DNA from: Brachionus koreanus
Taxonomy: Eukaryota > Rotifera > Eurotatoria > Ploima > Brachionidae
Length of the DNA stretch: 64,000 bases
NCBI GenBank assembly: GCA_016987375.1
Contig: PJRA01000524.1
Span: 151,996-215,995 of the forward strand
Reading direction: 5' to 3'
The notes below the pieces were generated by a model, which worked only from the letters and a program-made list of their open reading frames with translations, had not been told where the DNA came from and searched no databases. Made by a program: the position numbers and the translations under genes. Position 1 is the stretch's first letter; every line of letters begins with the position of its first letter. Shown one piece after another: positions 318 to 54,880 of the stretch.

Positions 318-390
318 CACCCCCAGAGGGGATCGAACCCTCGACCTATGGATTAGAAGTCCATCGCGCTATCCACTGCGCTATAGGGGC
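318..390 (-). tRNA. tRNA-Arg (anticodon TCT)
   Basis: A 73-nt cloverleaf on the minus strand. The acceptor stem is GCCCCTA paired with TGGGGGT plus discriminator G. The anticodon stem ATGGA/TCCAT closes loop CTTCTAA with anticodon TCT, and the T arm GAGGG TTCGATC CCCTC is the B box. There is no intron and no encoded CCA. It differs from the copy at 9727-9799 only at acceptor position 6 (T here, C there). A T-rich run for Pol III termination follows the 3' end on the minus strand. Confidence 0.97.
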
Positions 391-9726: not shown

Positions 9727-9799
9727 CACCCCCAGAGGGGATCGAACCCTCGACCTATGGATTAGAAGTCCATCGCGCTATCCACTGCGCTATGGGGGC
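9727..9799 (-). tRNA. tRNA-Arg (anticodon TCT), second copy
   Basis: A 73-nt cloverleaf identical to the gene at 318-390 except C instead of T at acceptor position 6, which restores a C-G pair in place of T-G. The anticodon loop is CTTCTAA and the T loop TTCGATC. It lies about 200 bp downstream of microprotein copy B. Flanks differ from those of the first copy, so only the tRNA itself is shared. Confidence 0.97.
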
Positions 9800-10820: not shown

Positions 10821-13800
10821 ATGAACGATGCCGAGTACACGTCGGGATCGATCGAGATACCGCTCAAAGACTCGGACGAAGTAATCGAGCTCGGCTTGGA
10901 CCAATTGCCCGATGGCGACGAAGTGCTGGCCATTCTCATACAAGAAAACTGTCCTCTTCACGTGTGGATTCGTCTGGCAATTGGCTACTACAAGCAAGCC
11001 AAGTTGGCCGATTTTGTGCGCATTCTGGAAGCATCGCGCACCAGCGCCAACACAAATTACCGCGGCTATGAAAAAGACCTGCTCAAAGCACTTGACACAC
11101 TGGCAGCCCACTATGTCCAAATGGCCAACAAAGAAAAGAACAAAGAGCTGAAAAAAGACTACTGCTCTAAAGCCACAGTTTTGTACACATCAGCAGACAA
11201 AATATCCATGTACGACTCGGACCATTTGCTTAGCAGAGCCTATTTTTGTTTGCTCGATTCGGACAAATTAGACCAAGCGGACGCTCAATTCAACTTTGTG
11301 TTGAGCACAAACGCTTACAATGTAGCCGCTCTAGTCGGCAAAGCGTCCATAGCTTTCAACAAAAAAGACTACAAAACTTCGCTTAACTATTACAAAAAAG
11401 CTTTGAAGACAAACGCGAACGCTCCAGCCGGCGTTCGTCTAGGCATGGGACTGTGCTTTTACAAGTTAGGCAAAGTGCCAAAGGCTAAATTGGCGTTTGA
11501 ACGAGCTCTTGAATTGGACGGTCAGTGCGTCGGCGCTCTAATCGGTCTATCGATTATTGAATTGAACAACAAAACGTCCGAATCGACCAAGCTCGGCGTT
11601 GATCTTTTGTCCAAAGCCTACAAGCTAGACTCCAAAAATCCAGTCATTCTAAATCATTTGGCTAATCATTTTTTCTACAAAAAAGAGTATCAAAAAGTGC
11701 AACAATTGGCCATGCACGCATTTCACAACACTGAAAATGAATTGATACGTGCGGAGACTTGCTATCAATTGGCCAGATCGTATCACATACAGGGCGATTA
11801 CGATCAAGCGTTTCAGTACTACTATCAAGCCACTCAATTCAACTCGTCTAGTTTTATATTGCCATTTTTCGGCTTAGGACAAATGTATTTGCATCGCAAC
11901 GATTCGGAAAATGCGGCTCTTTGCTTTGAAAAAGTTCTCAAGTCAAGTCCGAACAACTACGAGGCTATGAAAATATTGGGCAGCATTTATTCGAATAGCA
12001 AAGAAGCGGAAAAAAAAGAAATGGCCAAAGCTAACTTTAAAAAGGTCACCGAGCTTTGTCCCGACGACGTCGAAGCTTGGATCGAGTATGCCCAATTGCT
12101 CGAGTCACATGACATTCAAGGTGCACTCAATGCGTACGGCATTGCCATCAAAATACTAAAGGAAAATGTTCAAGAAGGAATTCCGCCCGAAATACTAAAC
12201 AACGTTGGCTCATTGTACTTTCGCACCGGAAACTTTGACGAGTCAAAGCGACACTTTGAGAACGCGCTCAGACTCGTCAATAATGAACTAATGCATGACA
12301 AGGTCTACTACGGGGCCATACAGACCACTATCGAGTACAATATAGCCCGATTGCACGAGGCCAGACACGAGTACGACATGGCCGAGAAAAGCTATAGGCA
12401 AATATTGTCTCGACATCCGCAGTACATTGATTGTATTCTACGCATTGGATGCATGTGTCGAGATCGCGGCCAAATACACGAGGCGTCCGAGTGGTTCAAA
12501 GAAGCGCTTCGTTTCACCCAAACTCAGCCCAATAGCTGGTCCCTATTGGGCAATTTACACATGGACAAGGAACAGCTTGGTCCCGCTCAAAATCAATTCG
12601 AGAGAATTCTCAAGTTTAACGAACAGGACACGTATGCATTGTGTGCATTGGGAAATATATGGTTGCACACGTTGTATCAGCCGAGCAAAGAAAAAGACAA
12701 GGGTAAACGCCACGAACAGCGTTCTCTACAAATGTATAAAAGTGTTTTGAAAATTGATCCGCGAAACATATGGGCAGCTAATGGTGTTGGATGTGTGCTT
12801 GCTCACAAGGGTTAGTGAATTTTAAATTTCTTATTTTTTCTTTTGGTAAACCATGCAATCTTTTACACAATTCAGTGATAGCTGCTTTTTTGAATTTTAG
12901 TTAAAATAAGAAAAAAAAAAATGTTCAATTCATAGAATTTATTGTGAAATTCAAATACAAACATAAAAAAAATTCTTACCATTTTGATAAATTGAAATTT
13001 ACTAAAATAAAATGTTCTTTATAAAAATACAACATAAAAGTGCAACATACACTCTAAGCGATTGAGATAAAATTTTTTGTATATTTAAGTTAAAGAACGA
13101 GTGTTACACACATAAATATAAAAAAAAAAAGGAAAAAATTGGTTGATGTTGCAAAAATTTTTCTGAAAAAAAATTCGCTTTTTTCTTTATCGGCATTTAA
13201 GTACAATAATTAAACTAAACACTTTTAAATGTGCAATTTGTATTTAATTTTTTATTGAAGAAAAGTTAAAATTAAAAAAATGAAAAATATTAATGGTCGA
13301 TTTCATTTCAAATTTTTGCACCTGAATTGCTTTTTTTTTGCTTATATTTGTATTTGGATTCTTTGGAGCATACTTAAAATGAGCTTGTACAATCTCTTGG
13401 GAGGATATATCAGCACGTCTATTTGAATGGAAACTATTGATGTAATTGATTCTAAATTTGAGATAAGATTTTATTTATTATTAAAGATTTAAAAACAGTT
13501 ACATACTTTTAGGTTTCGACTAGGCTTTGTCGTTGATGAAATCGAATGCTAGTATTCCTGTATTGATTCTGAAAGCATCGGTTACTTGTGACCGATTGAA
13601 CTATATAAAGATGAGACTAAAGAATAATTATCTATTGCTTTAATTTGTTATCGTATATTTTGACAAAATAAAAAGTTCACTATTTTACTAAATATTTTAT
13701 TTTTCTCGTAATTTTCTGAACATAATTAAATTTTATCCTAAATAACTAAAAATATGAAATAAATAAATATAATTCCAGGTCACTTATTTTTACAAAAATT

Positions 13801-25300: not shown

Positions 25301-28300
25301 AGTGCCATTGTCAAATAGACTGATTAACACTTCATTTATTTAAATTTTATAAAGAGCTAATTTCTTTAAAAAATAAATAGATTTGACTAATTAGAAAAAT
25401 TAAACATCAAAAAATTCAAATCAAATCATTTAAATTTTTCAACTAAATCTTTAGAAATTAAATTTATATTATTGTAAATAGAAAGCTTGAATGTTGTTAA
25501 TTTCAACATTGATCTCTTGATCACAAAGCCATATTCAAAATGAAAAAAAAATATTTACTTTTTTTACTATATATCTTTTATTAATTAAACAATTTTCTAT
25601 CATAAAAACAATATTTTTTTCTTTTTGAGACAACTTACTGAATAACACACACTATGTGAATATACAGAACTTAGACTTTTTAGATTATTTCCTCATGTGT
25701 TAATAAAAAAATAAATATTTCATTTTTTGTTTGATAAAAAATAAAAATTTTTTGTTCACTTTCATTTTATAATCAAAATTAACCAACACAGATCTAAAAC
25801 GTAAGTTAATTACTGTTCTAAACTAGTCGAGGTTGGTCGTCTACCCTTTCTGTCATTTTGATAAAATAAAAATTTCTGTTTAAAGTGCAACAATGTTGGT
25901 AACTAAAATTCATGATTAGAAATTTTGAGAAATATTATAACTTAACTTTAATTAAAAATAAAAAAAAAAACACTATTTTATTTTACTTGATTGGCAAGTT
26001 TGTAAACATTGGCAACAAGTTTTAATGTTTCAATCTCATTTTCTTTTCCTTCTAAGGAAACAATTCGATCTGTATACAAAAATTCCATCACCATTTTCAG
26101 AGCTTCGCCATTTTCTTCATTTATCCTAATTTCAATAAACTCATCTTGATTGAGACAAAATGGTGGCGATTTGATCTTGCGTTGCTCTTCTAGATTATAA
26201 AGCGAATTGGTCGAAGAACTTGAGCCAAGAGATACCAGAGCAGACAAAGTGGGAGGCGAAGGCTTCAATTTATCTTTGGCATGCTTGATTAGTTGGCGAA
26301 AATGAGGCGACCTGCTCGCCACAATTGCGCAATGTGCCAGCACAGTTTCATTCTAATTTAAACACATAAAATTCTACTGTAAAGCAAAAAATAACTCTAA
26401 AAATTACATTAGAGCAAATAAATTTTAAATCACAAAACATTTCTTTTTTTAAAATTTTGTAAAAGTCATCTTTGAGAGTAGACTTGGGCTGATTAGGCAA
26501 TTTAAATCTGAATAATTCATTACTGCGTGTATTTTGATCACCATTTCCACCAAAAACATACAAATTTTCATTTTTAACACTAGCAGCCAAAAAAGAACGT
26601 CCACTAGGCATCTAATTGAAAATTTTAATTTAAACTAAAGCAAATAAGTTAAAAATTTTCAATCAACAAACCACAGACTTGCCATGCATTGTTATAATAT
26701 CCCATGTCTTTGTTTCCAAGTCAAAACAGTAGATATCATGAAAAAAACTGTTGCCTAAAAATCCACTGTATATGTACAGCTGGTTGTGATGAGCGACCAT
26801 TATGTGACCGGAGCGTCTTTCCGGCGGAGAACTAGTCCCACGTAAAATAAAATTTGACGATATTTTAGACCAACTTGAAACAATTTTAAAAATCAGTTTT
26901 AAAATTAAAAAAATTAAAATTTTACTGTGAAGTTTTAAAATCAAATTTAAAGAGTAAATTTGAGGTTTTGGCACCACTTTGACCAGAAAATAGATACATT
27001 GCGTCTTGAACAACGGCTACTGGGAAATTACATACTGTTGACGGTTGTTCACCTGATTGCTCTACCTCAATCCAAGTTCTTGGCGTATTTTGAGATGAGT
27101 TCAATTGAATATGCCATAAGTCATTTAGTCTGGCGTTTCCATCATAGCCTGCAAAAATCCACAATTTATGGTCGTACACAACTGCTCCATGGGCTGCTCT
27201 CGGACATGGTGCACTAAATTAATTTAAAAATTTAATAAACAAGTAAAACTATTTATTATTAATTAATGAAAAAGTTTTAAAAATAATTTTTCAAATTTAA
27301 ATTTTTTCATTTCGGATTAGAAACTTAATAATCTGAATTTAGAATTATTGAAAAATTTTTTAAAGAAATCGGAGTGAAATGATAATAAATAGGCCTCAAA
27401 GTCTTAAATATAAATTTGTGTTTCTTATTTGATCATCAATTTTAAGTTGTCAAGTCGTTTGATAGATCCCTTTTTGACTTCTGTTTTGTGATAATTAATG
27501 TAGGGACTGGAAAAATCAAGTCAAGCCTTCATAAAATTGAAAAAAATATTCTAAAAATTATTAAGTATTTTTCAATTAAAACTTCTATTAGAAAGATTTA
27601 TAGGATACTTAAGCTTGATACGATTGAAGAGGGAACTTATCACCTTTTCGTCAAATTCCTAGAAGTTAAGTCGAAACAAAAGAACAAAAGATAATTCTTA
27701 TAAATGTCTAATCTATTTATTTATTTAGCAAATTTTTTAAAATTTTATAATCATTTTTTATAATTTATAGCTTTACATTTTAATAAGCTCTAAATTTTTT
27801 TTCCTGTGGCCATCAAAACTGCTAACACCAAGTTTTGGCGGCCCAGTGTCCATCACTGACGGTACCCAACACTATTATAAAGAGGTTGGTTTAAATCAAA
27901 AAAAATTTACAATATTTTTCCATAATAAAAAATTGGTTTGTGAATTATTTTTTTTATATTCGTAATATAAACTATTTGTCTTAATTTTATTTAAAGTCAA
28001 GACTGGTGTAAAAGATATATTAAATATCCTTCTCCATTGTGTAATTGCGAACTTACTATTTCCTCATTTTTCCCGAGCCATTATATATTTAAACATATGT
28101 AATATATGTCATTCAACATCATATTAGTCCTAAATGAATTAATTTTAATTTTAAAAAATATTATTTTCTAATTTTCTACATTGATTTATAAAATTTTGCA
28201 TCTTTTAAAAGTTTCTTTGTTTTTTTTTTTATTTTAGCATATTTGTAATTTTGAAAACTTAAGTCATATTACATGAATTGAATTCTCTTCAAAATGGTTA

Positions 28301-30542
28301 AACGTCTCTCCGATTTATAAAAAAGGAAATAGATCAGACTGTAAAAATTATAGACCTATCTCAATCACATCGATAACATGCCGTATTGCTGAGAGGATTA
28401 TTAGAAACTTGGTATTAAATTTTTGTCTTGAAAATATATTAATTGATCAATTTCAACATGGATTTATTCCTCATAAATCATGTACTACAAACCTACTGAA
28501 TCGTTTCTTAGTCATCGTAAACAAAGATTTGTAATAGGTAAAACAGAATCCGAATGGCTTAATGTGACTAGTGGCTCTGCCCTCGGTCCATTGCTTTTCA
28601 AAATTTTTATAAATGATTTGCCCAACAATCTAAAAAACAAATGTCTACTTTATGCAGACGACTGCAAGATATTCTGTATTATCCATCGATACAATCCGCA
28701 CGAATCATTTAAATTACTTCAAGATGATATTCATTCATTAATTAGCTGGTGTAATGAATGGTCTATGGATCTAAATTTTGATAAATGCGAAATTTTGAGT
28801 GTTAGTCGAAATCAAGGGCTCCAAAATGATTATATTATGAATGATTTAGTCAAAGGAAAAACTCATCTTGTCTCAAGATCAGAAAGACTTAGGAATCTGG
28901 ATTCAAAGTGATTTAAAATGGCATTCTCAAGTTTGCTCAGCCACCTCAAAATGCAACAGAATACTTAGTCAAGTTCTTCATGGTATTAAATTTCGAACAT
29001 AGATGGTCATTAAATTACTTTATACAAGTCTTGTTAGGCCTCACTTAGAGTATGCAATTCCTGTTTGGTGACCATGTATAGAGAAAGATAAAAAGATCTC
29101 CGGTTTTAAAGATATAAACTACAAAGATAGACTAAAGGCTCTAAATCTGACGAATATGACCGAAAGGCGCATGAGAGGTGACTTAATTCAAATGTTTAAA
29201 GTTAAAAAAAATATTGATCAAGTTATGGCAATCTCCACTCACTTTTTCAAGCAGAAGTTCAAGAGGCCATCCATACAAAATTAAAAGAGAAATAGTCAAA
29301 AATTGCGCCCAAAGATACCACTTCTTCACAAACCGTGTGATAAATGGTTGGAATAAGCTGGGAATGGATGCAGTTGAAGCTCAATCTAGCGATATTTTTA
29401 AAGCAAAAATAGACAAAAACTTTCATTATATTTTTTGCACATAATCTGTTGTCAGATTTACGCATTTTATGCGTTGCAATAAGCCACTATACTATACTAT
29501 ATTATGATACATCTAACTCTTTGTTTATTAAATTCTATAAAAATTTTTAAATTTTGATTTTGGTTGCTTTCGTGTTTAAAGATCTGAATATTTTTTAAAT
29601 CATTTGGTATGCAAAAACTAATAACAATATTCTCATTAAAAAAAGAAGATATTTCGAAAATATTTTAAATAATATTTTTTAAAATAAATTTATTTGTTAA
29701 TACTAAAATTTCGAGGGCAACTTTTTTGACACTAGTCTTTGAAAAAATTTGTAAAATGAATTAAAAAGACTTGTTTGATTAAAAAAAAAAAAATGTGAAA
29801 ATGTAAACAAACCTTTCTACGTTCCAAAATATCCAATTTCCTGTACTAAATTTGTATTCATACAAATCATTTTTATTACATAAATTTGAATTTGAGTTTA
29901 AGTCGCCAGTGTAACCACCTTTACCAATTTAAAGCAATTAATTGAGTCACAAGAGAAAAGTTGAAATTTACCAAATACAAACATGCTATTGTTATAGACT
30001 ACGGCTGTATGGTGGTATCTTGGTGTCGGTGGAGATCCATTCAATGCTCTTAAAATGAGAAAATTTAAATTAACAAGAAAAATAAAGAGATCTAAAAATT
30101 GTCACTACCTTCCCCATGAGTTGTTATTACAGTCATACGTTATCAAATCATTTAGCATTTGTTTTCCATTGTCTCCGCCAAAAACATACTACAAAAACAT
30201 AAAATTTAACAGCAAATTTAGAATTTAAAAGCTTAATGTCTTTACTAATGAATTGCCATACGCTACCATTGTATGCTTGCTTCTTCTTTAAATTTTCAAA
30301 ATTTTAAATTAATAATTTTTTAGAAAAAAATCATATTTTCATTACTTGGGCCCAATAAATTCATCGCACTCGGACATTTTGACCCAGCAGTTGCTCGTCT
30401 GAAAATTGTCAGACGTGAGCGAAGCGTTCGAGACCGATATCGAAGGCGATATTTGAGACACTGCATCGCTGAGATACTGTCCAATCGAACTAGTCGAGTG
30501 CAGATGAAAGTTCGATATGGACCTTGATTCCATATCGGCCAT
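22372..30542 (-). CDS. LZTR1: Leucine-zipper-like transcriptional regulator 1 (Kelch-BTB-BTB, CUL3 adaptor)
   Basis: About 14 exons on the minus strand. LZTR1 is a cullin-3 ubiquitin-ligase adaptor that targets RAS-family GTPases. Exon 1 (30542 to about 30346) ends [10 protein letters not shown], the start of the Kelch part. Later exons give [55 protein letters not shown] and [23 protein letters not shown]1 is at about 25988-26610 ([19 protein letters not shown], then MEFLYTDRI). A BACK-like part and [20 protein letters not shown] follow (23240-23580). BTB2 is at 22790-23160 ([20 protein letters not shown], then [18 protein letters not shown]), and the last exon starts [14 protein letters not shown] and ends at 22372. 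It has an added Ser-rich C-terminal tail. Two introns are large (23580-25986 and 27214-29812) and carry mobile elements; others are about 50 bp. The start shares a promoter with LIN37. Confidence 0.96.
23912..23992. mobile_element. 81-bp hAT-like miniature element with perfect 8-bp target duplication
   Basis: Flanked by GTTTTTAC at 23904-23911 and 23993-24000. Ends are CAAACTTGTGCAAAAGTC and, reverse-complemented, CAGAGTTGTTCAAAAGTC. The middle is a run of AGTC/GACT units. It is in the large intron of LZTR1. The end sequence is related to that of 16625-17138. Confidence 0.75.
24307..25052 (+). mobile_element. Tigger/pogo-type DNA transposon, internal deletion derivative
   Basis: 746 bp flanked by TA (24305-24306 and 25053-25054). 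The left end is CAGTCAATCCTCCGTACAAC and the right end, reverse-complemented, is CAGATAATCCTCGATATAAC, both followed by repeated AACGAA-type blocks, as in Tigger elements. It encodes only a DNA-binding domain (24600-24845). The DDE catalytic region is missing. Located in LZTR1's large intron, antisense to the gene. Confidence 0.9.
24600..24845 (+). CDS. Truncated Tigger transposase: CENP-B-like HTH only
   Basis: An 81-residue intact ORF inside the Tigger element. Residues about 10-60 form a CENP-B/psq-type helix-turn-helix ([17 protein letters not shown], then [20 protein letters not shown]). It stops shortly after, so neither the second HTH nor the DDE domain is encoded. If expressed it would be a stand-alone DNA-binding protein able to bind Tigger ends, which could act as a repressor; that is inference. 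It could also simply be a random remnant of a deletion derivative. Confidence 0.7.
   Translation: MSENLSNPVSKKRKCYSLETKIEIIKKHTDQKITSTALAKEYNANPSTISTILASKSKLLEMYEKNFVGPEKKTNETFELR
25147..25255 (+). mobile_element. hAT-like element fragment (right half)
   Basis: Matches the region 16929-17138 in order (aagatttg, then gcattactact, tttgaccaagacccctcaaa, then ttgacttgtgacttaaaaac). The right end is ACAAGTCTG. The left half and left terminus are absent. Inside LZTR1's large intron. Confidence 0.6.
25422..25530 (-). repeat. Dispersed repeat, related to 10107-10212
   Basis: On the minus strand it reads ctttgtgatcaagagatcaa, then tgttgaaatt, then tttacaataatataaattta. Same order as 10107-10212. Within LZTR1 intron. 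Confidence 0.6.
27480..27700 (+). mobile_element. Possible LINE C-terminal scrap
   Basis: An open stretch of 68 codons in the large LZTR1 intron reads [18 protein letters not shown], then [20 protein letters not shown]. The spacing resembles the post-RT motif of Jockey-like LINEs (L.KIQN..LR.......T....L....L.TI.ER.....KFLE). Weak similarity; it could be chance. Confidence 0.35.
28290..29500 (+). mobile_element. LINE pseudogene in LZTR1 intron
   Basis: A plus-strand RT with the fingers block [20 protein letters not shown] and [16 protein letters not shown]. An internal deletion removes palm motif A. Then come [37 protein letters not shown], the catalytic YADDCKIF (about 28650), [32 protein letters not shown] (stop), [19 protein letters not shown] and a long open tail to 29444. 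Several frame changes make it dead. The 3' end is near 29500 (short ACTATACT repeats). It belongs with the CR1/Jockey group by motif order. Confidence 0.88.
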
Positions 30543-30693: not shown

Positions 30694-31269
30694 ATGTACT
30701 CTAATTTTAACCATAATAAATCGCCCAAAAAGAAGAAGCGAAAGCATAGTGTGGAAAATTGCTCGACAAATGCGAGCAGGGCCAACCGCTCGACTTCTAA
30801 TGCCGCCAGCAACACAACTATAAACATAATTGATCGAGTTCTTGACTTGGGAAAGTATGAAAAAGAAACTGGATTGTATACTTTGTCGCGCGATTGGATT
30901 AATGCCACTACGATGGTCTCTGAGGCCAAAAATGTCAAAAAAGAGTCGGATCAAGACGATCAGGACGAAACAAAAGATGATTATTTTGTATATAAGCTTC
31001 CTGGTCCGGATCGAACAGAAAATTGCTTGGATATTGGCGAGTTAAATGAAGACATACGAAAGTCAGTTAGACTTTCTGAAAAAAGTGATTTGGAACTAAT
31101 ATCAGGTCTTAATGTTGACGAGAACATGCAAACGCATGCTTTGCTTAAATTGCATGTCAATAGATGGAAGCAAGCTAGAAACAAATGGATTTATTTTTAT
31201 AAAGAATCGAATAAGCCCTATAAGCATAGTTATAGTTGTTTAAAATCAATTCTTGAAGAATTTGATTAA
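30694..31269 (+). CDS. LIN37: LIN37 homologue (MuvB/DREAM complex subunit)
   Basis: 191 residues, single exon from ATG at 30694. LIN37 is a core MuvB subunit that helps DREAM repress cell-cycle genes in the nucleus. The protein begins with a basic NLS-like block SPKKKKRKHS. The first conserved block is IIDRVLDLGKYEKETGLYTL, then SRDWINATT (human counterpart [20 protein letters not shown], then CRAWMRN). The linking motif DYFVYKLPGPD matches VYKLPPP. The C-terminal block LLKLHVNRWKQARNKW, then YSCLKSILEEFD, matches LIYRNMQRWKRIRQRW and YSESMKILREM. The protein is somewhat shorter than the human one (246 aa). Divergent from LZTR1. Assignment rests on three conserved blocks in order. Confidence 0.88.
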   Translation: MYSNFNHNKSPKKKKRKHSVENCSTNASRANRSTSNAASNTTINIIDRVLDLGKYEKETGLYTLSRDWINATTMVSEAKNVKKESDQDDQDETKDDYFVYKLPGPDRTENCLDIGELNEDIRKSVRLSEKSDLELISGLNVDENMQTHALLKLHVNRWKQARNKWIYFYKESNKPYKHSYSCLKSILEEFD

Positions 31270-36107: not shown

Positions 36108-37418
36108 ATGACTAGAATTTTTTTGTTTTTACTTAATGTTTTATCAAGTTTGTTATTAATAGAAGCATGTGATATAGACGATTTTGGTGCGATCAGTAAT
36201 AATCCGTCTTACACAGCATCAATTCAAAACGGCATAGCCTTGATGAATTGCTTTCAAAACGCCAATTCAAGCACTGATCGAACTGTTTTGGTGAAAAAAG
36301 ACAAAAATTATTCACTTATTCCGGCTGGAGTTATTTATAACTTGGTGAATGTTACTCTACAATTGGATGGTGCTTTAGAATTATGGAATGGCGACCATGG
36401 CAAATGGCCAAACGACACTCACAATAAGGCCCTAGCCTTACTTGCTATAACAAACACTCAGGGCTTAGTTATAAAAGGCAATGGGGTGATTCATGGAAAT
36501 GGATATTCATGGTGGTGGTCCGTGATATTCAATGGACATGACAACAGACCTAATCTAATGGACATAAGAACCAGCAAGGATACGCTTGTTGAGGGCATAA
36601 CTGTAATGAATGCTCCACAATATCACATAAATTTTATGGATACTTTGAATTTGACCATTCAGCACATAAAAATTTTGGTTAATATAACAGACTTGAACTT
36701 TAATGATTCGGCACCAATTTTTCCACTTAACACAGATGGGATTGACGTGAGAGGAAAAAATGTTTTGATAAGAAATATTACAGTTGAGAATTATGATGAT
36801 GCTGTAGCAGTTAAACCAACACACAAAAACGAAGCTATTTATTCAGATTGCACTGAGAATATAATAATAGAAGATAGTTATGTTAAATATGGAGTTGGAA
36901 TGAGTATGGGCTCGGTTCCGCCAAATTCAGACTTGGCATGCATCAAAAATGTCACAATACGAAATATAAAATTTGATAGTCCATTTAAAGCAATCTATAT
37001 CAAGCCAAATCCAGGCAACAATGGAATGGGTTTGATTTCAAACATTGTTTATGAGAATATAGAAATTAGAGAGCCTCTTTGGTGGGCAATTTATATTGGC
37101 ACTCAACAGCAAAAACAGCCGTACACCAACGGTACTGGATGTTCGTTTTTTTTTCCTTTACCAGGTACTGAGTGTCCTTCAAATCCGCTGGTAACTGTTA
37201 AAGATATCACACTTAAAAATGTAAATATTTATGGCGGTCTATTGTCGCCTGGTATTATGAGATGTCATGAAAAGAATCCATGCACAAATTTGTTATTTGA
37301 CAGCGTTAATGTTTATAACAGGTCGTTTTTTCCTATTGAAGATGGCTATTTGTGCGAAAATTTTAGTGGCTATGCTAAAAATAGTAATTTAGTTCCAAGT
37401 TGTTTAAAAAAATTATAA
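36108..37418 (+). CDS. GH28 polygalacturonase-like secreted protein
   Basis: 436 residues, no introns, start ATG at 36108. The signal peptide is about residues 1-20 (FLFLLNVLSSLLLIEA), with cysteine right after. The right-handed beta-helix of glycoside hydrolase family 28 is clear: GNGVIHGNGYSWWW (124-137), LNTDGIDV (207-214), NYDDAVAVKP (228-237), YGVGMSMGSV (261-270) and KAIYIKPN (294-301). GH28 enzymes cleave alpha-1,4-galacturonan (pectin). The three catalytic aspartates (NTD and DD) are kept, but the conserved His of GHG is Val263 and the Arg of RIK is Tyr297 (YIK). Many N-glycosylation sequons (NVT, NLT, NIT, NRS) suit secretion in a eukaryote. GH28 is not an ancestral animal family, so horizontal acquisition is likely. 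Whether it still cleaves pectin is uncertain; it may act on another uronan or be non-catalytic. Confidence 0.92.
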   Translation: MTRIFLFLLNVLSSLLLIEACDIDDFGAISNNPSYTASIQNGIALMNCFQNANSSTDRTVLVKKDKNYSLIPAGVIYNLVNVTLQLDGALELWNGDHGKWPNDTHNKALALLAITNTQGLVIKGNGVIHGNGYSWWWSVIFNGHDNRPNLMDIRTSKDTLVEGITVMNAPQYHINFMDTLNLTIQHIKILVNITDLNFNDSAPIFPLNTDGIDVRGKNVLIRNITVENYDDAVAVKPTHKNEAIYSDCTENIIIEDSYVKYGVGMSMGSVPPNSDLACIKNVTIRNIKFDSPFKAIYIKPNPGNNGMGLISNIVYENIEIREPLWWAIYIGTQQQKQPYTNGTGCSFFFPLPGTECPSNPLVTVKDITLKNVNIYGGLLSPGIMRCHEKNPCTNLLFDSVNVYNRSFFPIEDGYLCENFSGYAKNSNLVPSCLKKL

Positions 37419-37952: not shown

Positions 37953-39110
37953 CTAAATTTTAGAAATTAAATTTTGTTCGAGAAAATTGTAGATAAATGG
38001 ACAATTTTTGTTAGCGAAAAACTCGTATAAACTAAAGTCATTATATTTGACTGGAAATTGCTGACTAAATTTTCCATAAAAATGTACTGAATATGTGTCT
38101 TTAAATGAATGAATATCAATTAAACCATTTTTCAAGAACAGTTTTTTAACATTTTCCCAATTAATCGGATAAAAAAAATTTTCTGGAAATAATTCTACAT
38201 CACACTTGCGATTAGCACTAGTTAATTCTTCATAAATATTATCAGTTTTACAATATGACTGTAATGAACTCATAAACAGCTTGGGTCCATTGTTACCCCA
38301 TTCATTTGGCTTGTAGTTTTTTCTAAAATCTCTCATGACATCATGTAGAAATGAATGATTTTTATCAAATACCAAAATACCATTGCCCAAACTGGGCTTG
38401 GAAAACTCGGTTATGTAGCCGAGTCCGTTTCTTTTCAGCAAGGAATCAAGTTCGCGTATGGTAATTGTGTCCAAATCGGAATAATATCCCCCATATTTGT
38501 ACAAAAGAGCTATTCGTATTGAATCTGACAAATCGTGAATCCAATATTGGCTTTTGAATACTTCATTTTCGTGGCTTAGCCACCAAGTCAAAAGTGGTGT
38601 GTTGTTGAACACATCGGCCTCATTTGCCACACTAAATTTAATGTTTGGATACTTTTTAACCAAATTGGCGTCTATTTTGGCTCCAAGTGTTATTATGTGA
38701 ACATCGGCTTTTGGATTGTTGAATGCAGCTGATTCTATGCTGCACATTTGTTTATAGTCAAGATGATCTCTTGATCTGTCTGTTTCCACAAAAAATAAGT
38801 TGACTTTTTTCTCATTTATGATAAATTTAGTTGATACTATTTTATTATCTAGGCTGTATTTGGTCGGGACATTATTTACAAAAATGAAAAAAACCATTGA
38901 AAAAAGAATAAATGCTGATCTGATGATTTTTTCCGGGTTCCATATGATTCGATTTGCCACGTAAAGAAAAGCGAAAGCTGAAAAAAGGGAGGCTATTTGT
39001 GGATTGGGGATGAGAATTTTTTGTATGAACGTATAGATTATTATCAAAAACAAACATTTTAGATATGTTGAAGAAGAATTATTTTCCATTTTGTATAATT
39101 TGGATTCCAT
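37953..39110 (-). CDS. A4GALT-like alpha-1,4-glycosyltransferase (GT32)
   Basis: 385 residues, intronless, ATG at 39110. The catalytic part matches lactosylceramide 4-alpha-galactosyltransferase/alpha-1,4-GlcNAc transferase: NLFFVETDRS (104-113), QMCSIESAAFNNP (121-133), SDSIRIALLYKYGGYYSDLD (195-214, with the metal-binding DxD as DLD 212-214), WGNNGPKLF, and FYPINWENVKKLF. These Golgi enzymes add Gal or GlcNAc in alpha-1,4 linkage to glycolipids or glycoproteins. Unusual: the N-terminus has three hydrophobic segments (about 18-35, 38-57, 64-79) where family members have a single type II anchor. The exact donor and acceptor cannot be told from sequence. Confidence 0.88.
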   Translation of the reverse strand: MESKLYKMENNSSSTYLKCLFLIIIYTFIQKILIPNPQIASLFSAFAFLYVANRIIWNPEKIIRSAFILFSMVFFIFVNNVPTKYSLDNKIVSTKFIINEKKVNLFFVETDRSRDHLDYKQMCSIESAAFNNPKADVHIITLGAKIDANLVKKYPNIKFSVANEADVFNNTPLLTWWLSHENEVFKSQYWIHDLSDSIRIALLYKYGGYYSDLDTITIRELDSLLKRNGLGYITEFSKPSLGNGILVFDKNHSFLHDVMRDFRKNYKPNEWGNNGPKLFMSSLQSYCKTDNIYEELTSANRKCDVELFPENFFYPINWENVKKLFLKNGLIDIHSFKDTYSVHFYGKFSQQFPVKYNDFSLYEFFANKNCPFIYNFLEQNLISKI

Positions 39111-40227: not shown

Positions 40228-41415
40228 ATGAAAGCTGAATCGTTCAATCAAGTGGCTTGTTCTCCTTTAAGGAGCAGTGAAAACAATTTTCAAATTTTAA
40301 ACAATCCATTGATTCGCACAATATCTGGCATAACAATGATAGCCTGTTTCATGACCATTATTAAAATGGGACCAGCAGCCATATTTCTCTGCAATCTCTT
40401 ATTCATTACAAAATCATTTGATGAATTACTAAACATTGGCCTAAAAACTTATCAATGCAGTTCAATAAGAAAAGCGTTTACACTCAGTTGGTTTCTGTTT
40501 GTAGTCAGTACTTATGCTTTAGTTGGACAGTCGATTTATGATGAATTTACTCTAGATCTACAAAATCATTTAATTTTAAGACCGATTATAAAATACCATG
40601 GAATTATGTGCTTCTCAGTTTACACTTTGGGACTTGTAATTTTTTTGGCAAATCTTAATAATTCAAATTATTTGAACATGTATTCAATGATTGGTTTTGT
40701 TCACGTATGTATTGCAATTTTGATCATACCATTTTCTATGAGCATAAAATACTTTTCCAAAGGTATTATTAGGTTTTTATTTCCACTCATTACAGTGATT
40801 TTCAACGATATAGCTGCTTATGTTATCGGTAGTGTATGTGGAAGACATAAGCTTATTGGATTATCTCCAAAAAAAACTTGGGAAGGTTTCATAGGTGCCC
40901 TTATTCTAAGTCCCATTTTCGGCTACTCTCTGTCTTCTTTTATGTGCAAATTTGATTATTTTTTATGTCCCATAAAATATGAATCAAATCAGAATTGGTT
41001 TGTGATTGATCAATGTCAAAAAGATCTAATCTTTCATCCTAAAGAGCATAGATTAACGGAAAATATCAAAATATCCATTGAGCCTTTTCAATTTCATGCA
41101 TTTGTTCTATCCATTTTGGCTTCAACACTGGGCCCTCTTGGTGGGTTTATTGCGAGTGGTTTTAAAAGAGCCTGTGGTATTAAAGACTTTGGAAATACGA
41201 TTCCAGGACATGGCGGCGTTCTAGACAGACTTGACAGTCAATTTCTGTTTCAAGTTTTTGTTTATTTTTATGTAGATTGTATAATAAATGAGACCATTGA
41301 GAATGTGAATTATACTAGTACATTTAATGAACAAAGAGGTGAAAAGAAGGAATTTTTCAAGCTTTTGCATTCTCAATTAGATGTACCAATTGATATAAAT
41401 AAAATTTGTAAATAA
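40228..41415 (+). CDS. Phosphatidate cytidylyltransferase (CDP-diacylglycerol synthase)
   Basis: 395 residues, no introns, ATG at 40228. It catalyses CTP + phosphatidate to CDP-diacylglycerol + PPi in the ER membrane, feeding phosphatidylinositol and cardiolipin synthesis. Multiple transmembrane segments are visible (about 29-60, 83-101, 122-142, 155-170, 182-202, 221-240, 288-310). Conserved blocks are FNDIAAYVIG (192-201), LSPKKTWEGFIGA (212-224) and the full family signature at 310-336, which includes SGFKRACGIKDF and IPGHGGVLDRLD. All signature residues (K-R, K-D, H-G-G, D-R-D) are intact. Human CDS1/CDS2 are about 445-460 aa; the cytosolic N-terminus is shorter here. Lack of introns could mean a retrocopy origin, but no poly(A) tract or duplicate in the window proves it. 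Confidence 0.95.
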   Translation: MKAESFNQVACSPLRSSENNFQILNNPLIRTISGITMIACFMTIIKMGPAAIFLCNLLFITKSFDELLNIGLKTYQCSSIRKAFTLSWFLFVVSTYALVGQSIYDEFTLDLQNHLILRPIIKYHGIMCFSVYTLGLVIFLANLNNSNYLNMYSMIGFVHVCIAILIIPFSMSIKYFSKGIIRFLFPLITVIFNDIAAYVIGSVCGRHKLIGLSPKKTWEGFIGALILSPIFGYSLSSFMCKFDYFLCPIKYESNQNWFVIDQCQKDLIFHPKEHRLTENIKISIEPFQFHAFVLSILASTLGPLGGFIASGFKRACGIKDFGNTIPGHGGVLDRLDSQFLFQVFVYFYVDCIINETIENVNYTSTFNEQRGEKKEFFKLLHSQLDVPIDINKICK

Positions 41416-44139: not shown

Positions 44140-45024
44140 CTAATGAAATAAAGAAAGATGCCGGTTAATTGACGCTTTATCTGAGCCAACTTTGAACCAG
44201 TAGAACTCCATTAGTGCAAACAAAATTGCAATTAAAGTACATCCGAAAAAAAATGTCAGTATAAGCATCCATTCTGCTCTATTTAAATACTTTTTGGCTC
44301 TGTTTAAATCTCGATTTTCATAATAGGTTTTTGTTTTCCTGGCAAAAATAATGCCCAATAGACCAGTCAATGGAAAACACCAACAGCAAATTACAGACAC
44401 TAAATTGATGTATTTAACATGGTCCGAATTAAATTCGGAACTTGGCTCTTGAATAGCTAGATTAGTATTTATGATCACATTTCCCGTTTGATCTCGCTGA
44501 ACTAACGAATTTGAGGACAAATTTAGAGAAGCTAAAGAAGGTTCTTGTTCGTTAACAGGCACAGATCTTCCCGACTGACGATCTTGATTCAATTTTTGCT
44601 CGTCTTGTATCAAATTTTCTTTGCTTGTTTTGTACACTTCAAGCAAGAGGTCAGTACAAATCAGAGGCTTGGGCTCATTTGTCTTGCAGTTTTTGTCCTG
44701 ACTGGGTGTCTTTGATGGAGAAACCTGTGATTTTACTGCAAAGCCGTTTTTGTTCACATAAACGTATTTTTGTTCTTTGTTCATGTCGGGAATTTTTTGA
44801 TCAGAAGAACTTTTGGTCATTTTGTTTGTAGCTAAAAAATTGGACGAAACTTTTCCGATGAGAAATTCGTCTGTTTCTCGGTAACTGCTCGTTTCCGAAT
44901 CAGACCTGTTTAACAATGTAGTGTACTTGAAGTTTCCATTTTCGTAAAGCGCATCGTCATCTGCTTGACGAACATTTATCACTGTTTTCATTTGAGTGTC
45001 TGATTCGCTTTTGCTTGGAAACAT
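44140..45024 (-). CDS. Dispanin (CD225-domain) family membrane protein, long
   Basis: 294 residues from ATG at 45024. About 210 residues of polar, Ser/Lys/Asp-rich, probably disordered cytosolic sequence are followed by a C-terminal CD225-like unit: YINLVSVICCWCFPLTGLLG, the loop IFARKTKTYYENRDLNRAKK, and helix MLILTFFFGCTLIAILFALM. Double cysteines next to the first helix (CCWC) are typical palmitoylation sites in IFITM-type proteins. The order helix, basic loop, helix is shared with the short gene at 41511-41885. Intronless. No known function can be assigned; membrane-trafficking adaptor is the family-level guess. Confidence 0.72.
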   Translation of the reverse strand: MFPSKSESDTQMKTVINVRQADDDALYENGNFKYTTLLNRSDSETSSYRETDEFLIGKVSSNFLATNKMTKSSSDQKIPDMNKEQKYVYVNKNGFAVKSQVSPSKTPSQDKNCKTNEPKPLICTDLLLEVYKTSKENLIQDEQKLNQDRQSGRSVPVNEQEPSLASLNLSSNSLVQRDQTGNVIINTNLAIQEPSSEFNSDHVKYINLVSVICCWCFPLTGLLGIIFARKTKTYYENRDLNRAKKYLNRAEWMLILTFFFGCTLIAILFALMEFYWFKVGSDKASINRHLSLFH

Positions 45025-45439
45025 CAAAATTTAATTAGTGTCGAATGAGCTTAATTTATTGAAATGATTTTTGAAAATCAAAAAAGGAACTTTTCATGTA
45101 TATTTGTGTTTTTTGATTTTTGATTTTTAAAGCACGCCGATTTTTTAAACTTGATTTGCTTCTTTTTTATTTTTTGTTTTTATTTTTTCATTTAAATAAA
45201 AATTAGAATAGTTCTTTTAAAATCATTTAAAATGACTAACAAAATAAGACTATTTAATATTTTCTTCTATATATCATGTTATCAGAATGAAAAAAATTCT
45301 CCCGAAGAATTTAAAATTCTTAAATAGTTGAAATTTTTGTTTAAAAATAAAAATAGCTTAATTTTTAAACAATTATTACCTGCTTTTTTGAAAGCAGATT
45401 TTTTTGTTTTACATTTTTTGAATTTCATGGTTAATTAAC

Positions 45440-46084: not shown

Positions 46085-47055
46085 CATAGGATTAATTATA
46101 ATAGATAAAAAGATGAAATTTTCTAGATAATTTTATTAACTAATAGATAAAAAGACAAAACACTATATAAAAATATTTTTTACTAGATAAAGAAATTATT
46201 TGATAGACAAGAAAATGAAAAAAAATATATAAAATAAATGACTACTTATTTTTTTCTTCTTTTATTGCGCGACTCATGAACATGTTCAGCATCAATTTGA
46301 TTACTGTTTGAAGCAGCTCTTTTGTTTGATTATTTCTGTTATGTTTATTTCTTCTTCCTCTTCGTTTTCATAAATGATTTCTGTTGTATTGTTAATTTGT
46401 ATATTTGTTTGCTTATTTACCGGTATATCTAGATAGTCTTCATACGTATCTTCATTGCTAGAATCACTGACAGCTTCACCGGGTTGTCTTTCCAAGCCAT
46501 TTGCCGTATCTTTTGGTCTATCAGTCCGCTCAGCTATTCCGAAAACGTGTTTGCACATGTAATGTTTCGGCCATGCCATACAACTACAGCGACTTCTCTT
46601 CCCATCTTCTTCATTGAAATCAATAAAATAGATCGAGTTGAACTCTGAAACGAATTTATCAAAACTATTCCAAGCAAGCTTTTTAATTAATGACAAAAAT
46701 GCTTTACAATATTTCGAATCCAATTTCTCTCTCAATTTTTTAATTGCCTTTTCGTGATCATAGGCAAGCTAAGACGTCTTATTTCATTCAAAATCTGTTT
46801 GTTCCTCGTTACACCCGTTTAAAGAAAGAATAAAATATTGAGTTTTCAATTATATCTAGTACTATTCAATTATATCTAGTATTAATTATATCTAGTTAAT
46901 TAATAAAATTATCTAGCATTTTAATTTTTTTATCTATGAATGTGTCTATTTATCTAGGTGTTAAATTTATTATCTAGTAAATAATTTTTTTATATAGTAC
47001 ATTTAATACATTTTATCTAGTAAGTTCATATTTTTATATAGTATACATTAATATT
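46085..47055 (-). mobile_element. Mutator-like element with repeat-rich termini
   Basis: Both ends are arrays of short AGATAA/TTATCTA units in inverted orientation. Left (46095-46215): aatagataaaaag, tctagataattttattaact, actagataaagaaat. Right (46850-47045), reverse-complemented: actagataaaatg, gctagataattttattaatt, tagataaaaaaatt. Between them is the transposase C-terminal fragment 46301-46735. Long repeat-structured termini plus a SWIM domain suggest a MULE. Target duplication not determined. Confidence 0.6.
46301..46735 (-). pseudogene. MULE transposase C-terminal fragment with SWIM zinc finger
   Basis: About 145 codons open on the minus strand. The SWIM motif CxCxnCxH is seen as CSCMAWPKHYMCKHVFGIAE, preceded by FVSEFNSIYFIDFNEEDG, the normal C-terminal layout of MULE/FLYWCH-type transposases. 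An acidic tail follows (EDTYEDYLDIPVN, then YENEEEEEINITEII). The DDE catalytic domain is missing, so this is a truncated copy. Confidence 0.7.
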
Positions 47056-52948: not shown

Positions 52949-54880
52949 ATGAAACAAATACAACTTGTTGTTATTTTATTGTTATGGCAAAGGAGCCGGG
53001 CCGATCTCAGCGAGGATCTCACCAATCTGTTCCAGCAAAGACAAGGCTCAAAGTACACGGCGTCGGCCAACTCAATCGAGCCGACAGACCAGTGCGAGCC
53101 TCTGGACACAGACATTCTACCGTTGTGCAAAGACATTGCTTACAACGAGACCAGATTTCCAAATTTTTTGAAGCAAAAGAGCCAAAAAGAAGCCGCCCAA
53201 GACACGGCACTCTACTTGCCGCTGATTCGAATTAACTGCTCGCCAGTTTTAAAGCTCTTCTTATGCTCGCTTTATGCGCCGCCATGCGTCAAAAACTACT
53301 CTTCAACTTTGAAGCCGTGTCGCGAAATGTGCCAAAAAGCGAAAGCCGGCTGCGAGGACATAATGAAAAAGTACTCTGTGCCGTGGCCGGACTACATTGA
53401 CTGCTGGAAATTTCCGTCATTCAACGGACCTGAGGCTTGTATCACTGACGAAAACTACGCTCAGACATCGCAAGGCGTACAGCATCAGCGCACCTTCTCT
53501 CTCTCAGCACCGGCTAGCACAAACAAATTGGACACGAGCTTTTTGGCCAATTTAACCCCTGAACAACAACAATATCTATTAAATTCGCTAATCGGCGCCA
53601 CGAACACAAACCCGGTCAGCTCTTTGCCAAAACAAAACTACTATCAATTGTACGCGGCTGCTATTGCCGCTGCTGCTGCGGTTCAAACACAACAACAAAG
53701 CAAAAATTATGCTCATCAACGAATTAAATTTGTTTGTCCGCCCATACTTCAATTGATCACTGATACAAAAAACACTTATTATTTGACAGTAAACGATGAT
53801 TATGTGACCAGTTGTGGCATGCCATGTGACAATAATCTATTTGATAAATCCGAAATTAGCTTTGCCAGATCTTGGATTCTAATCTGGTCGTCACTATGCT
53901 TCAGCTCGACACTCATCACACTGCTAACATTTTTGATTGAAACATCACGTTTCCGCTATCCAGAAAGACCTATTATATTTCTAAGTGCTTGCTACATGAT
54001 TGTAGCTATGGGTTTTTTAATCGGATCAAGCTCAAATGACAACTCGATTGTGTGCAAGTCACAAAAGAACGCCATGATGCAAAGCAAAGAGTATTTGGTG
54101 CAAGGCGTTGAACATTTGCCATGCACTCTTCTTTTTATGATGATTTATTTCTTCGGCATGGCTTCGTCCATCTGGTGGGTAGTGTTGACACTGACTTGGT
54201 TTTTGGCTGCTGGTCTCAAGTGGGGCCACGAGGCCATCGAGAACATATCGTCTTATTTTCACTTGGCAGCATGGACAATACCAGGAGTCAAGCTGATAGC
54301 TGTTTTGTGGCTGCAGAAAATCGATGCCGACATCCTAAGTGGCATTTGTTTCACTGGCTTGAGAAACATGAACTTAATGAGAGGCTTTTTGATCGCCCCA
54401 TTACTCCTCTATTTGATACTGGGAGCTTGTTTTCTGCTAGCCGGCTTCGTCTCTCTATTCAGAATACGCAATGTGATGAAACACGAAGGAAACAAGACCG
54501 ACAAGCTGGAAAAATTCATGGTACGCATTGGTGTCTTCAGCATTATGTACATGGTACCAGCCATTATTGTAATCTGTTGCTATTTTTACGAACAGTCTTC
54601 GTATAACAAATGGATTGATTATTGGCTAAAGACAAATTCAATTGAGTTCAATCTGCCGCCTGACTATGTCTCTACTATTTTGTATGAGAATGACCGCGGC
54701 GCGATGATCTTTTCACTCTTTATGGTCAAGTATGCCATGCTACTGGTAGTTGGCATAACGAGCAGCTTTTGGATTTGGTCCCACAAGACTGTGAGCTCGT
54801 GGCAGAGATTTTTTGACAAAATTTTCGGTTGTTGTAACACCAACTTCGGGCCCAAGTACAAAAACGAGGCTGCTGTTTGA
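52949..54880 (+). CDS. Frizzled family Wnt receptor
   Basis: 643 residues in one exon, ATG at 52949. Signal peptide about 1-18. The cysteine-rich Wnt-binding domain spans residues 49-164 with the ten expected cysteines (49, 60, 97, 106, 113, 124, 128, 135, 152, 164). A long linker follows, with Gln runs and a poly-Ala block (YAAAIAAAAAV). Seven transmembrane helices begin at ARSWILIWSSLCFSSTLITL. FLIETSRFRYPERPIIFLSA, WWVVLTLTWFLAAGLKWGHE and YFHLAAWTIPGVKLIAVLWL are classic Frizzled blocks. The Dishevelled-binding KTxxxW motif is HKTVSSWQRF, 24 residues from the C-terminus, which ends NEAAV, a possible PDZ ligand. Lack of introns and the C-terminus suggest the FZD1/2/7 group, but subtype is not settled. 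Exon base composition is much GC-richer than its flanks. Confidence 0.95.
   Translation: MKQIQLVVILLLWQRSRADLSEDLTNLFQQRQGSKYTASANSIEPTDQCEPLDTDILPLCKDIAYNETRFPNFLKQKSQKEAAQDTALYLPLIRINCSPVLKLFLCSLYAPPCVKNYSSTLKPCREMCQKAKAGCEDIMKKYSVPWPDYIDCWKFPSFNGPEACITDENYAQTSQGVQHQRTFSLSAPASTNKLDTSFLANLTPEQQQYLLNSLIGATNTNPVSSLPKQNYYQLYAAAIAAAAAVQTQQQSKNYAHQRIKFVCPPILQLITDTKNTYYLTVNDDYVTSCGMPCDNNLFDKSEISFARSWILIWSSLCFSSTLITLLTFLIETSRFRYPERPIIFLSACYMIVAMGFLIGSSSNDNSIVCKSQKNAMMQSKEYLVQGVEHLPCTLLFMMIYFFGMASSIWWVVLTLTWFLAAGLKWGHEAIENISSYFHLAAWTIPGVKLIAVLWLQKIDADILSGICFTGLRNMNLMRGFLIAPLLLYLILGACFLLAGFVSLFRIRNVMKHEGNKTDKLEKFMVRIGVFSIMYMVPAIIVICCYFYEQSSYNKWIDYWLKTNSIEFNLPPDYVSTILYENDRGAMIFSLFMVKYAMLLVVGITSSFWIWSHKTVSSWQRFFDKIFGCCNTNFGPKYKNEAAV

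What the first reader, a model, noticed from the sequence alone, without database searches (positions are those of the whole stretch)
36108..37418. Animal GH28 polygalacturonase-like gene with His and Arg of the active site replaced
The sequence keeps the NTD and DD aspartates, but GHG has become GVG (Val263) and RIK has become YIK (Tyr297). In studied GH28 enzymes the three aspartates do acid/base catalysis while the His and Arg-Ile-Lys shape substrate binding. The gene is intronless, has a eukaryotic signal peptide and many N-glycan sequons. Pectin-degrading families are not ancestral to animals, so transfer from a bacterium, fungus or oomycete is likely, followed by change of specificity or loss of catalysis.
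Basis: partly seen in the sequence, partly recalled or inferred. Interest (0 to 1): 0.8.

Follow-up and report, generated by a model that had tools for sequence, protein, structure and literature searches.

The report
Rotifer gene of protist-type GH28 clade
A small planktonic animal (a rotifer) carries a gene for a secreted sugar-chain-cutting enzyme that most likely came from a single-celled eukaryote, and whose odd active-site letters are the normal signature of a large, unstudied group of enzymes rather than damage.

Summary
Window 36108-37418 (+) is one complete, intronless 436-aa ORF of glycoside hydrolase family 28 (GH28), the only match found in its assembly, with a hydrophobic N-terminus and 12 N-glycan sequons. 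Asp210, Asp230, Asp231 and Lys299 are kept. Val263 and Tyr297 stand where plant polygalacturonases have His (GHG) and Arg (RIK). The contig carries LIN37 and Frizzled; Brachionus plicatilis has a homolog (85%).

Among 206 proteins examined (best-scoring hits only), none has His at 263 (Val in 190) and none of 203 has Arg at 297 (Tyr in 200); catalytic Asp are kept in 206 of 206, Lys in 203 of 203. Val/Tyr is the signature of a broad eukaryotic GH28 clade (ciliates, choanoflagellate, chromerid, ochrophyte, apusomonad, nematode), not a change after transfer, and lost catalysis is unlikely.

The rotifer gene groups with Stentor and unnamed proteins; grouping with choanoflagellate rows (AU p 2e-5) or the nematode (p 4e-5) is rejected. 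Protist-to-rotifer transfer is likely, donor and direction not settled. Best guess: an active, secreted uronan hydrolase whose +1 subsite does not hold galacturonate, as in rhamnogalacturonase A. Substrate untested.

The parts
36108..37418 (+). GH28 gene, 436 aa, complete intronless ORF (ATG..TAA), only match found in the assembly
36108..36167 (+). probable signal peptide, about residues 1-20
   Evidence: hydrophobic N-terminus in the translation, helix 2-16 in the model; no dedicated predictor run
36735..36737 (+). Asp210 of NTD, catalytic by homology
   Evidence: 206 of 206 family proteins; aligned to NTD of PGLR/ADPG2/XghA
36795..36800 (+). Asp230-Asp231 of DD, catalytic by homology
   Evidence: 206 of 206 each
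36894..36896 (+). Val263 (GTT) at the place of His in GHG
   Evidence: alignment; V 190, T 7, L 4, I 4, G 1 of 206, never H
36996..36998 (+). Tyr297 (TAT) at the place of Arg in RIK
   Evidence: alignment; Y 200, H 2, F 1 of 203, never R
37002..37004 (+). Lys299 of (R/Y)IK, kept
   Evidence: 203 of 203
37104..37112 (+). Gln333-Gln334-Gln335, clade motif
   Evidence: Q333 199 of 201, Q334 199 of 201, Q335 178 of 200
30694..31269 (+). LIN37 gene, animal-type neighbour upstream (animal nature recalled)
   Evidence: Pfam LIN37 E 7.1e-19
37953..39110 (-). alpha-1,4-glycosyltransferase (Gb3_synth), neighbour downstream
   Evidence: Pfam E 1.3e-33
52949..54880 (+). Frizzled receptor on the same contig (animal nature recalled)
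   Evidence: Pfam Frizzled E 4.3e-124, Fz E 1.6e-28

Best explanation
The gene is an intact member of an uncharacterised eukaryotic GH28 clade that most likely entered the ancestor of the Brachionus plicatilis group from a protist, most probably a relative of heterotrich ciliates or another protist whose copies group with theirs. It encodes a secreted, glycosylated, right-handed beta-helix hydrolase. Inferred mechanism: single-displacement (inverting) hydrolysis of a uronic-acid-containing polysaccharide, with Asp230 as acid and Asp210/Asp231 activating the water. Lys299 would bind the carboxylate of the uronic acid at the -1 subsite. With no His263 and no Arg297, the +1 subsite would hold something other than galacturonate, as in rhamnogalacturonase A, which also lacks both. 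In the animal it probably serves digestion of algal or protist wall polysaccharide. Shown here: family, kept catalytic residues, clade-wide Val/Tyr, predicted fold, animal locus, tree position. Inferred: secretion, activity, substrate, digestive role, exact donor.
Against: I found no assayed member of the clade. Donor: 17 rows between Stentor and Brachionus are unnamed proteins that could be ciliates, other protists or other rotifers, so donor and direction are not settled. Excluding Brachionus from the 17+9 or 17+9+6 rows is not rejected (AU p 0.064 and 0.168), nor is Brachionus + the 9 Stentor rows (p 0.107). The ciliate Stylonychia sits elsewhere in the tree, so 'ciliate' is not one block. 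By profile E-value the plant polygalacturonases and XghA are nearer than rhamnogalacturonase A, the review says the His of GHG acts in catalysis, and a Streptomyces GH28 of unknown activity also has YIK, so the substrate reading is weak.
Confidence: 0.6

Rival explanations
1. Ordinary endo-polygalacturonase: despite Val and Tyr the enzyme cuts homogalacturonan, with other residues (for example the nearly invariant Lys294, Gln333, Gln334) doing the work of His and Arg.
For: Closest solved structures by sequence profile and fold are the plant endo-polygalacturonases PGLR and ADPG2. Lys294 is in 203 of 204, Gln333 and Gln334 in 199 of 201 each.
Against: His and Arg are missing in every clade member examined. 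[quoted passage not shown]
Confidence: 0.25
2. Vertical inheritance: the clade is ancestral to holozoans and the rotifer kept an animal gene lost in most animals.
For: Monosiga brevicollis carries the family, and so do rows that by their identifiers look like other choanoflagellates and a sponge (labels recalled); six such rows form a clade at 100/99.
Against: Holding the Brachionus rows with that clade costs 182 log-likelihood units (AU p 2.3e-5); with the nematode row P0127, 109 units (p 4.2e-5).
Confidence: 0.06
3. Transfer went the other way or through a third party: a rotifer-borne gene moved into heterotrich ciliates, or both took it from an unsampled protist.
For: Unnamed rows separate Stentor from Brachionus, and several alternative placements near them are not rejected.
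Against: The group is itself nested among more distant rows that include protists, and the 9 Stentor rows form their own clade (100/99).
Confidence: 0.2
4. Catalytically dead GH28 (binding protein or pseudo-enzyme).
For: His and Arg are missing; the review names both motifs as active-site segments and says the His acts in catalysis.
Against: All three catalytic Asp kept in 206 of 206, Lys in 203 of 203, across ciliates, choanoflagellate, chromerid and ochrophyte; rhamnogalacturonase A, named as an enzyme, also lacks His and Arg.
Confidence: 0.06

Closest known systems
Plant endo-polygalacturonases PGLR (7b7a, 8ikx) and ADPG2 (7b8b), Arabidopsis, GH28
   Different: 18-23% identical; they have GHG and RIK where the rotifer protein has GVG and YIK
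Rhamnogalacturonase A of Aspergillus aculeatus (1rmg), GH28
   Same: Lacks the His and the Arg of the two motifs; keeps Ile-Lys and an Asn two residues after the Lys (MIKSN against YIKPN)
Endo-xylogalacturonan hydrolase of Aspergillus tubingensis (4c2l), GH28
   Different: Keeps His (SHG)
Horizontally acquired GH28 of the nematode Aphelenchus avenae and of the rice weevil
   Same: GH28 gained by an animal from another kingdom (PMC2825203, passages read)
   Different: Those are of fungal type by that paper, and of bacterial type in root-knot nematodes; the rotifer gene belongs to a protist-type clade with Val/Tyr
Acrobeloides nanus (nematode) P0127 and P0144
   Same: Same GH28 clade in another animal
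   Different: In a separate 17-row clade of the tree; joining P0127 with Brachionus is rejected

Membership tests
Glycoside hydrolase family 28 | Profile match over the catalytic domain | tested here: met
   PF00295 E 8.4e-39, residues 103-404 on profile 44-308 of 324
Glycoside hydrolase family 28 | Right-handed parallel beta-helix | tested here: met
   Model pLDDT 94.3; the 18 best rows of the second look are polygalacturonases, a galacturonidase, a xylogalacturonan hydrolase and a rhamnogalacturonase by title, all GH28 by recall
Glycoside hydrolase family 28 | Three catalytic aspartates (NTD, DD) | tested here: met
   D210, D230, D231; 206 of 206 in the clade
Polygalacturonase (homogalacturonan-cutting GH28) | His of GHG | tested here: not met
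   Val263; 0 of 206 clade members have His
Polygalacturonase (homogalacturonan-cutting GH28) | Arg of RIK | tested here: not met
   Tyr297; 0 of 203 have Arg
Polygalacturonase (homogalacturonan-cutting GH28) | Hydrolysis of polygalacturonic acid | not testable with these tools
   needs the expressed enzyme
Rhamnogalacturonan hydrolase (GH28) | Absence of His and Arg at the two sites | tested here: met
   Val and Tyr here, Gly and Met in 1rmg
Rhamnogalacturonan hydrolase (GH28) | Grouping with rhamnogalacturonase A in a tree | tested here: not met
   33 clade rows stand apart from 1rmg with 99/99; 1rmg is a long branch of unsure place
Rhamnogalacturonan hydrolase (GH28) | NCBIfam rhamnogalacturonidase models at their cut-off | tested here: not met
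   best model NF049899 E 7.6e-14 but 51 bits against a cut-off of 650
Eukaryotic GVG/YIK GH28 clade (named here) | Val-like residue at 263, Tyr at 297, Gln-Gln at 333-334, and clade in a tree | tested here: met

The most novel reading that the evidence does not exclude
A large, biochemically untouched GH28 clade spread over eukaryotes (ciliates, choanoflagellates, filasterean- and sponge-like rows, chromerid, ochrophyte, apusomonad) works with a different active site (Val, Tyr, Gln-Gln in place of His, Arg) on a non-homogalacturonan uronan of algal or protist walls. It has moved at least twice into microscopic animals that feed on microbes: once from a heterotrich-like ciliate or kin into Brachionus, and once, separately, into the nematode line of Acrobeloides.
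Probability: 0.4. Interest if true: 0.65.

Novelty: new variant of a known kind. Interest (0 to 1): 0.48.

Why it matters
If right, a 'broken' active site read in one animal turns out to be the fixed design of a whole unassayed enzyme clade, so one expressed protein could open a new substrate class in GH28. It would also be a case of a eukaryote-to-animal gene transfer in a monogonont rotifer that is a standard aquaculture feed animal (recalled), from a likely prey or competitor (a protist) rather than from bacteria or fungi.

Tried and rejected
Bacterial origin: two scans of genome contigs with clade profiles gave 36 and 39 pattern stretches, none confirmed; tblastn on plasmids matched 90 of 72,556 records, every one under 60% identity, the 15 records listed of those 90 at 22.5-29.3%. 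The contig scans see only relatives that share the patterns; no positive control was run.

Viral carrier: three viral-contig scans gave 13, 13 and 42 stretches, none confirmed.

Contamination: judged unlikely from the neighbours on the contig and the B. plicatilis homolog; read coverage could not be checked.

Ancestral animal gene: rejected by AU tests. Results against or neutral to my reading: AU tests that did not reject alternative placements near Stentor. The test that the 17 unnamed rows form a clade without Brachionus was rejected (p 0.014). Several of these groups were named after the first tree was seen, which weakens their p values. The nematode test used P0127 only; P0144 came later. 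The quick 118-row tree gave the same place for the rotifer rows (20 rows, 98).

Rows dropped: one search used 100 of 121 proteins (380 aa or more). One search used 115 of 143 proteins (380-560 aa) plus 3 bacterial rows. Searches used 68 of 143 and searches used 79 of 206, picked by me for spread. One search used 33 of 206 plus 7 outsiders. Each protein search lists only the best 120 of 200, 265 and 369 hits, so the census covers the best-scoring part of the clade; the query itself is one of the 206. In one search gaps leave 198-206 residues per column reported.

Literature; two searches found no paper, and one search listed 20 of 345. None of the listed titles and abstract starts described this clade. 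I opened passages of three papers only; (PMC3253082) held nothing of use. The library lacks most subscription journals.

Taxon labels recalled, not from a call: 'Opistho-2' as filasterean, 'm.' identifiers as choanoflagellates, 'scpid' as the sponge Sycon, P0172 as Oxytricha. Roles of single residues (acid, base, subsites) are recalled from Aspergillus niger polygalacturonase II, beyond what states. That LIN37 and Frizzled mark an animal genome is recalled.

Full report
Observation. The interval 36108-37418 on the + strand is a complete ORF of 436 codons with no stop inside. It matches Pfam GH28 with E 8.4e-39 and is the only such gene found in the 83.3-Mb, 92-contig assembly. NTD, DD and the Lys of the RIK motif are present; the His of GHG is Val263 and the Arg of RIK is Tyr297. 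Alignment to solved plant and fungal structures and to three bacterial GH28s puts both residues at those columns. Twelve N-glycan sequons and a hydrophobic N-terminus are present.

Locus. LIN37 (30694-31269), an alpha-1,4-glycosyltransferase (37953-39110), a CTP_transf_1 enzyme (40228-41415), a CD225 protein (44140-45027) and Frizzled (52949-54880) lie in the same window. LIN37 and Frizzled point to an animal contig (their animal nature is recalled). Each of these matches sits in one open frame, so being intronless does not single out the GH28 gene. Its codon use correlates best with its two nearest neighbours (0.85, 0.87), less with the other four genes compared (0.68-0.74). The closest database proteins are P0003, named Brachionus plicatilis (85%), and unnamed P0002 (83%), so the window is most likely a Brachionus and the gene is shared within that genus.

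The Val and Tyr are a clade signature. In the 100 of 121 proteins that are 380 aa or longer, Tyr297 was kept in 100 and Val263 in 95. Over all 206 proteins collected, Asp210, Asp230 and Asp231 are in 206 of 206, Lys299 in 203 of 203. Position 263 is V 190, T 7, L 4, I 4, G 1, and position 297 is Y 200, H 2, F 1 of 203. His and Arg do not occur there as they do in polygalacturonases: no His at 263, no Arg at 297. Named members are Stentor coeruleus and Stylonychia lemnae (ciliates), Triparma laevis, Chromera velia, Monosiga brevicollis, Thecamonas trahens, a bicosoecid, Acrobeloides nanus (nematode) and Brachionus plicatilis. A tree with four solved GH28 enzymes and three bacterial ones keeps 33 clade representatives together (99/99).

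Origin. In the 68-row tree the three Brachionus-type rows join two unnamed rows (96/85), lie in a 20-row group (93/95), and with the 9-row Stentor group (90/75) and 6 more rows form a 35-row clade (100/100). In the 79-row tree the corresponding 30-row clade has 95/95, while Monosiga, choanoflagellate-like and sponge-like rows form another clade (100/99) and the two nematode rows lie in a third (17 rows, 97/99). AU tests reject Brachionus with the choanoflagellate/sponge-like rows (p 2.3e-5) and with nematode row P0127 (p 4.2e-5). They do not reject small moves around the Stentor group (p 0.064, 0.168; 0.107). So foreign, protist-type origin is well supported; the exact donor and the direction against ciliates are not. 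No bacterial, archaeal or viral relative of the clade was found, with the limit that these scans detect only relatives sharing the patterns.

Verdict. The gene is real, intact and of probable protist origin. The claimed active-site change is real as a sequence feature but is ordinary within its clade. What deserves attention is the clade: widespread in eukaryotes, with a fixed non-canonical GH28 active site, and not described in the titles and abstract starts that the searches listed (two searches listed none).

Noticed in passing
window 28277-28911 (+): Two overlapping frames with reverse transcriptase (RVT_1) matches, a decayed retroelement about 7 kb upstream of the GH28 gene.
   Followed up: partly
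window 37953-39110 (-): The next ORF downstream of GH28 is another carbohydrate gene, an alpha-1,4-glycosyltransferase of the Gb3-synthase type in one open frame; the two ORFs end 0.5 kb apart, tail to tail.
   Followed up: partly
window 318-390 and 9727-9799 (-): Two tRNA-Arg genes with the same anticodon (tct), 9.4 kb apart.
   Followed up: no
window 10821-12815 and 52949-54880: The TPR gene and Frizzled have GC3 of 0.51-0.52, against 0.26-0.36 in the five other ORFs measured, GH28 included.
   Followed up: partly
P0127 and P0144 (Acrobeloides nanus): A nematode has at least two diverged copies (54% identical) of the same protist-type GH28 clade; P0127 has His at the Tyr297 column (GIHVK). 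Contamination was not excluded.
   Followed up: partly
P0181 and P0182: A sponge-like sequence (identifier style recalled as Sycon) and an unnamed one on a 354-kb contig pair up and lie with Monosiga, which hints that the clade is old in holozoans.
   Followed up: partly
L006 940-2277: A Streptomyces plasmid GH28 has YIK in place of RIK and no His at the aligned GHG column, so Tyr there also arises outside the eukaryotic clade.
   Followed up: no
window 46301-46768 (-): A frame with a Cys/His pattern like a SWIM zinc finger (judged by eye), but no Pfam match.
   Followed up: partly
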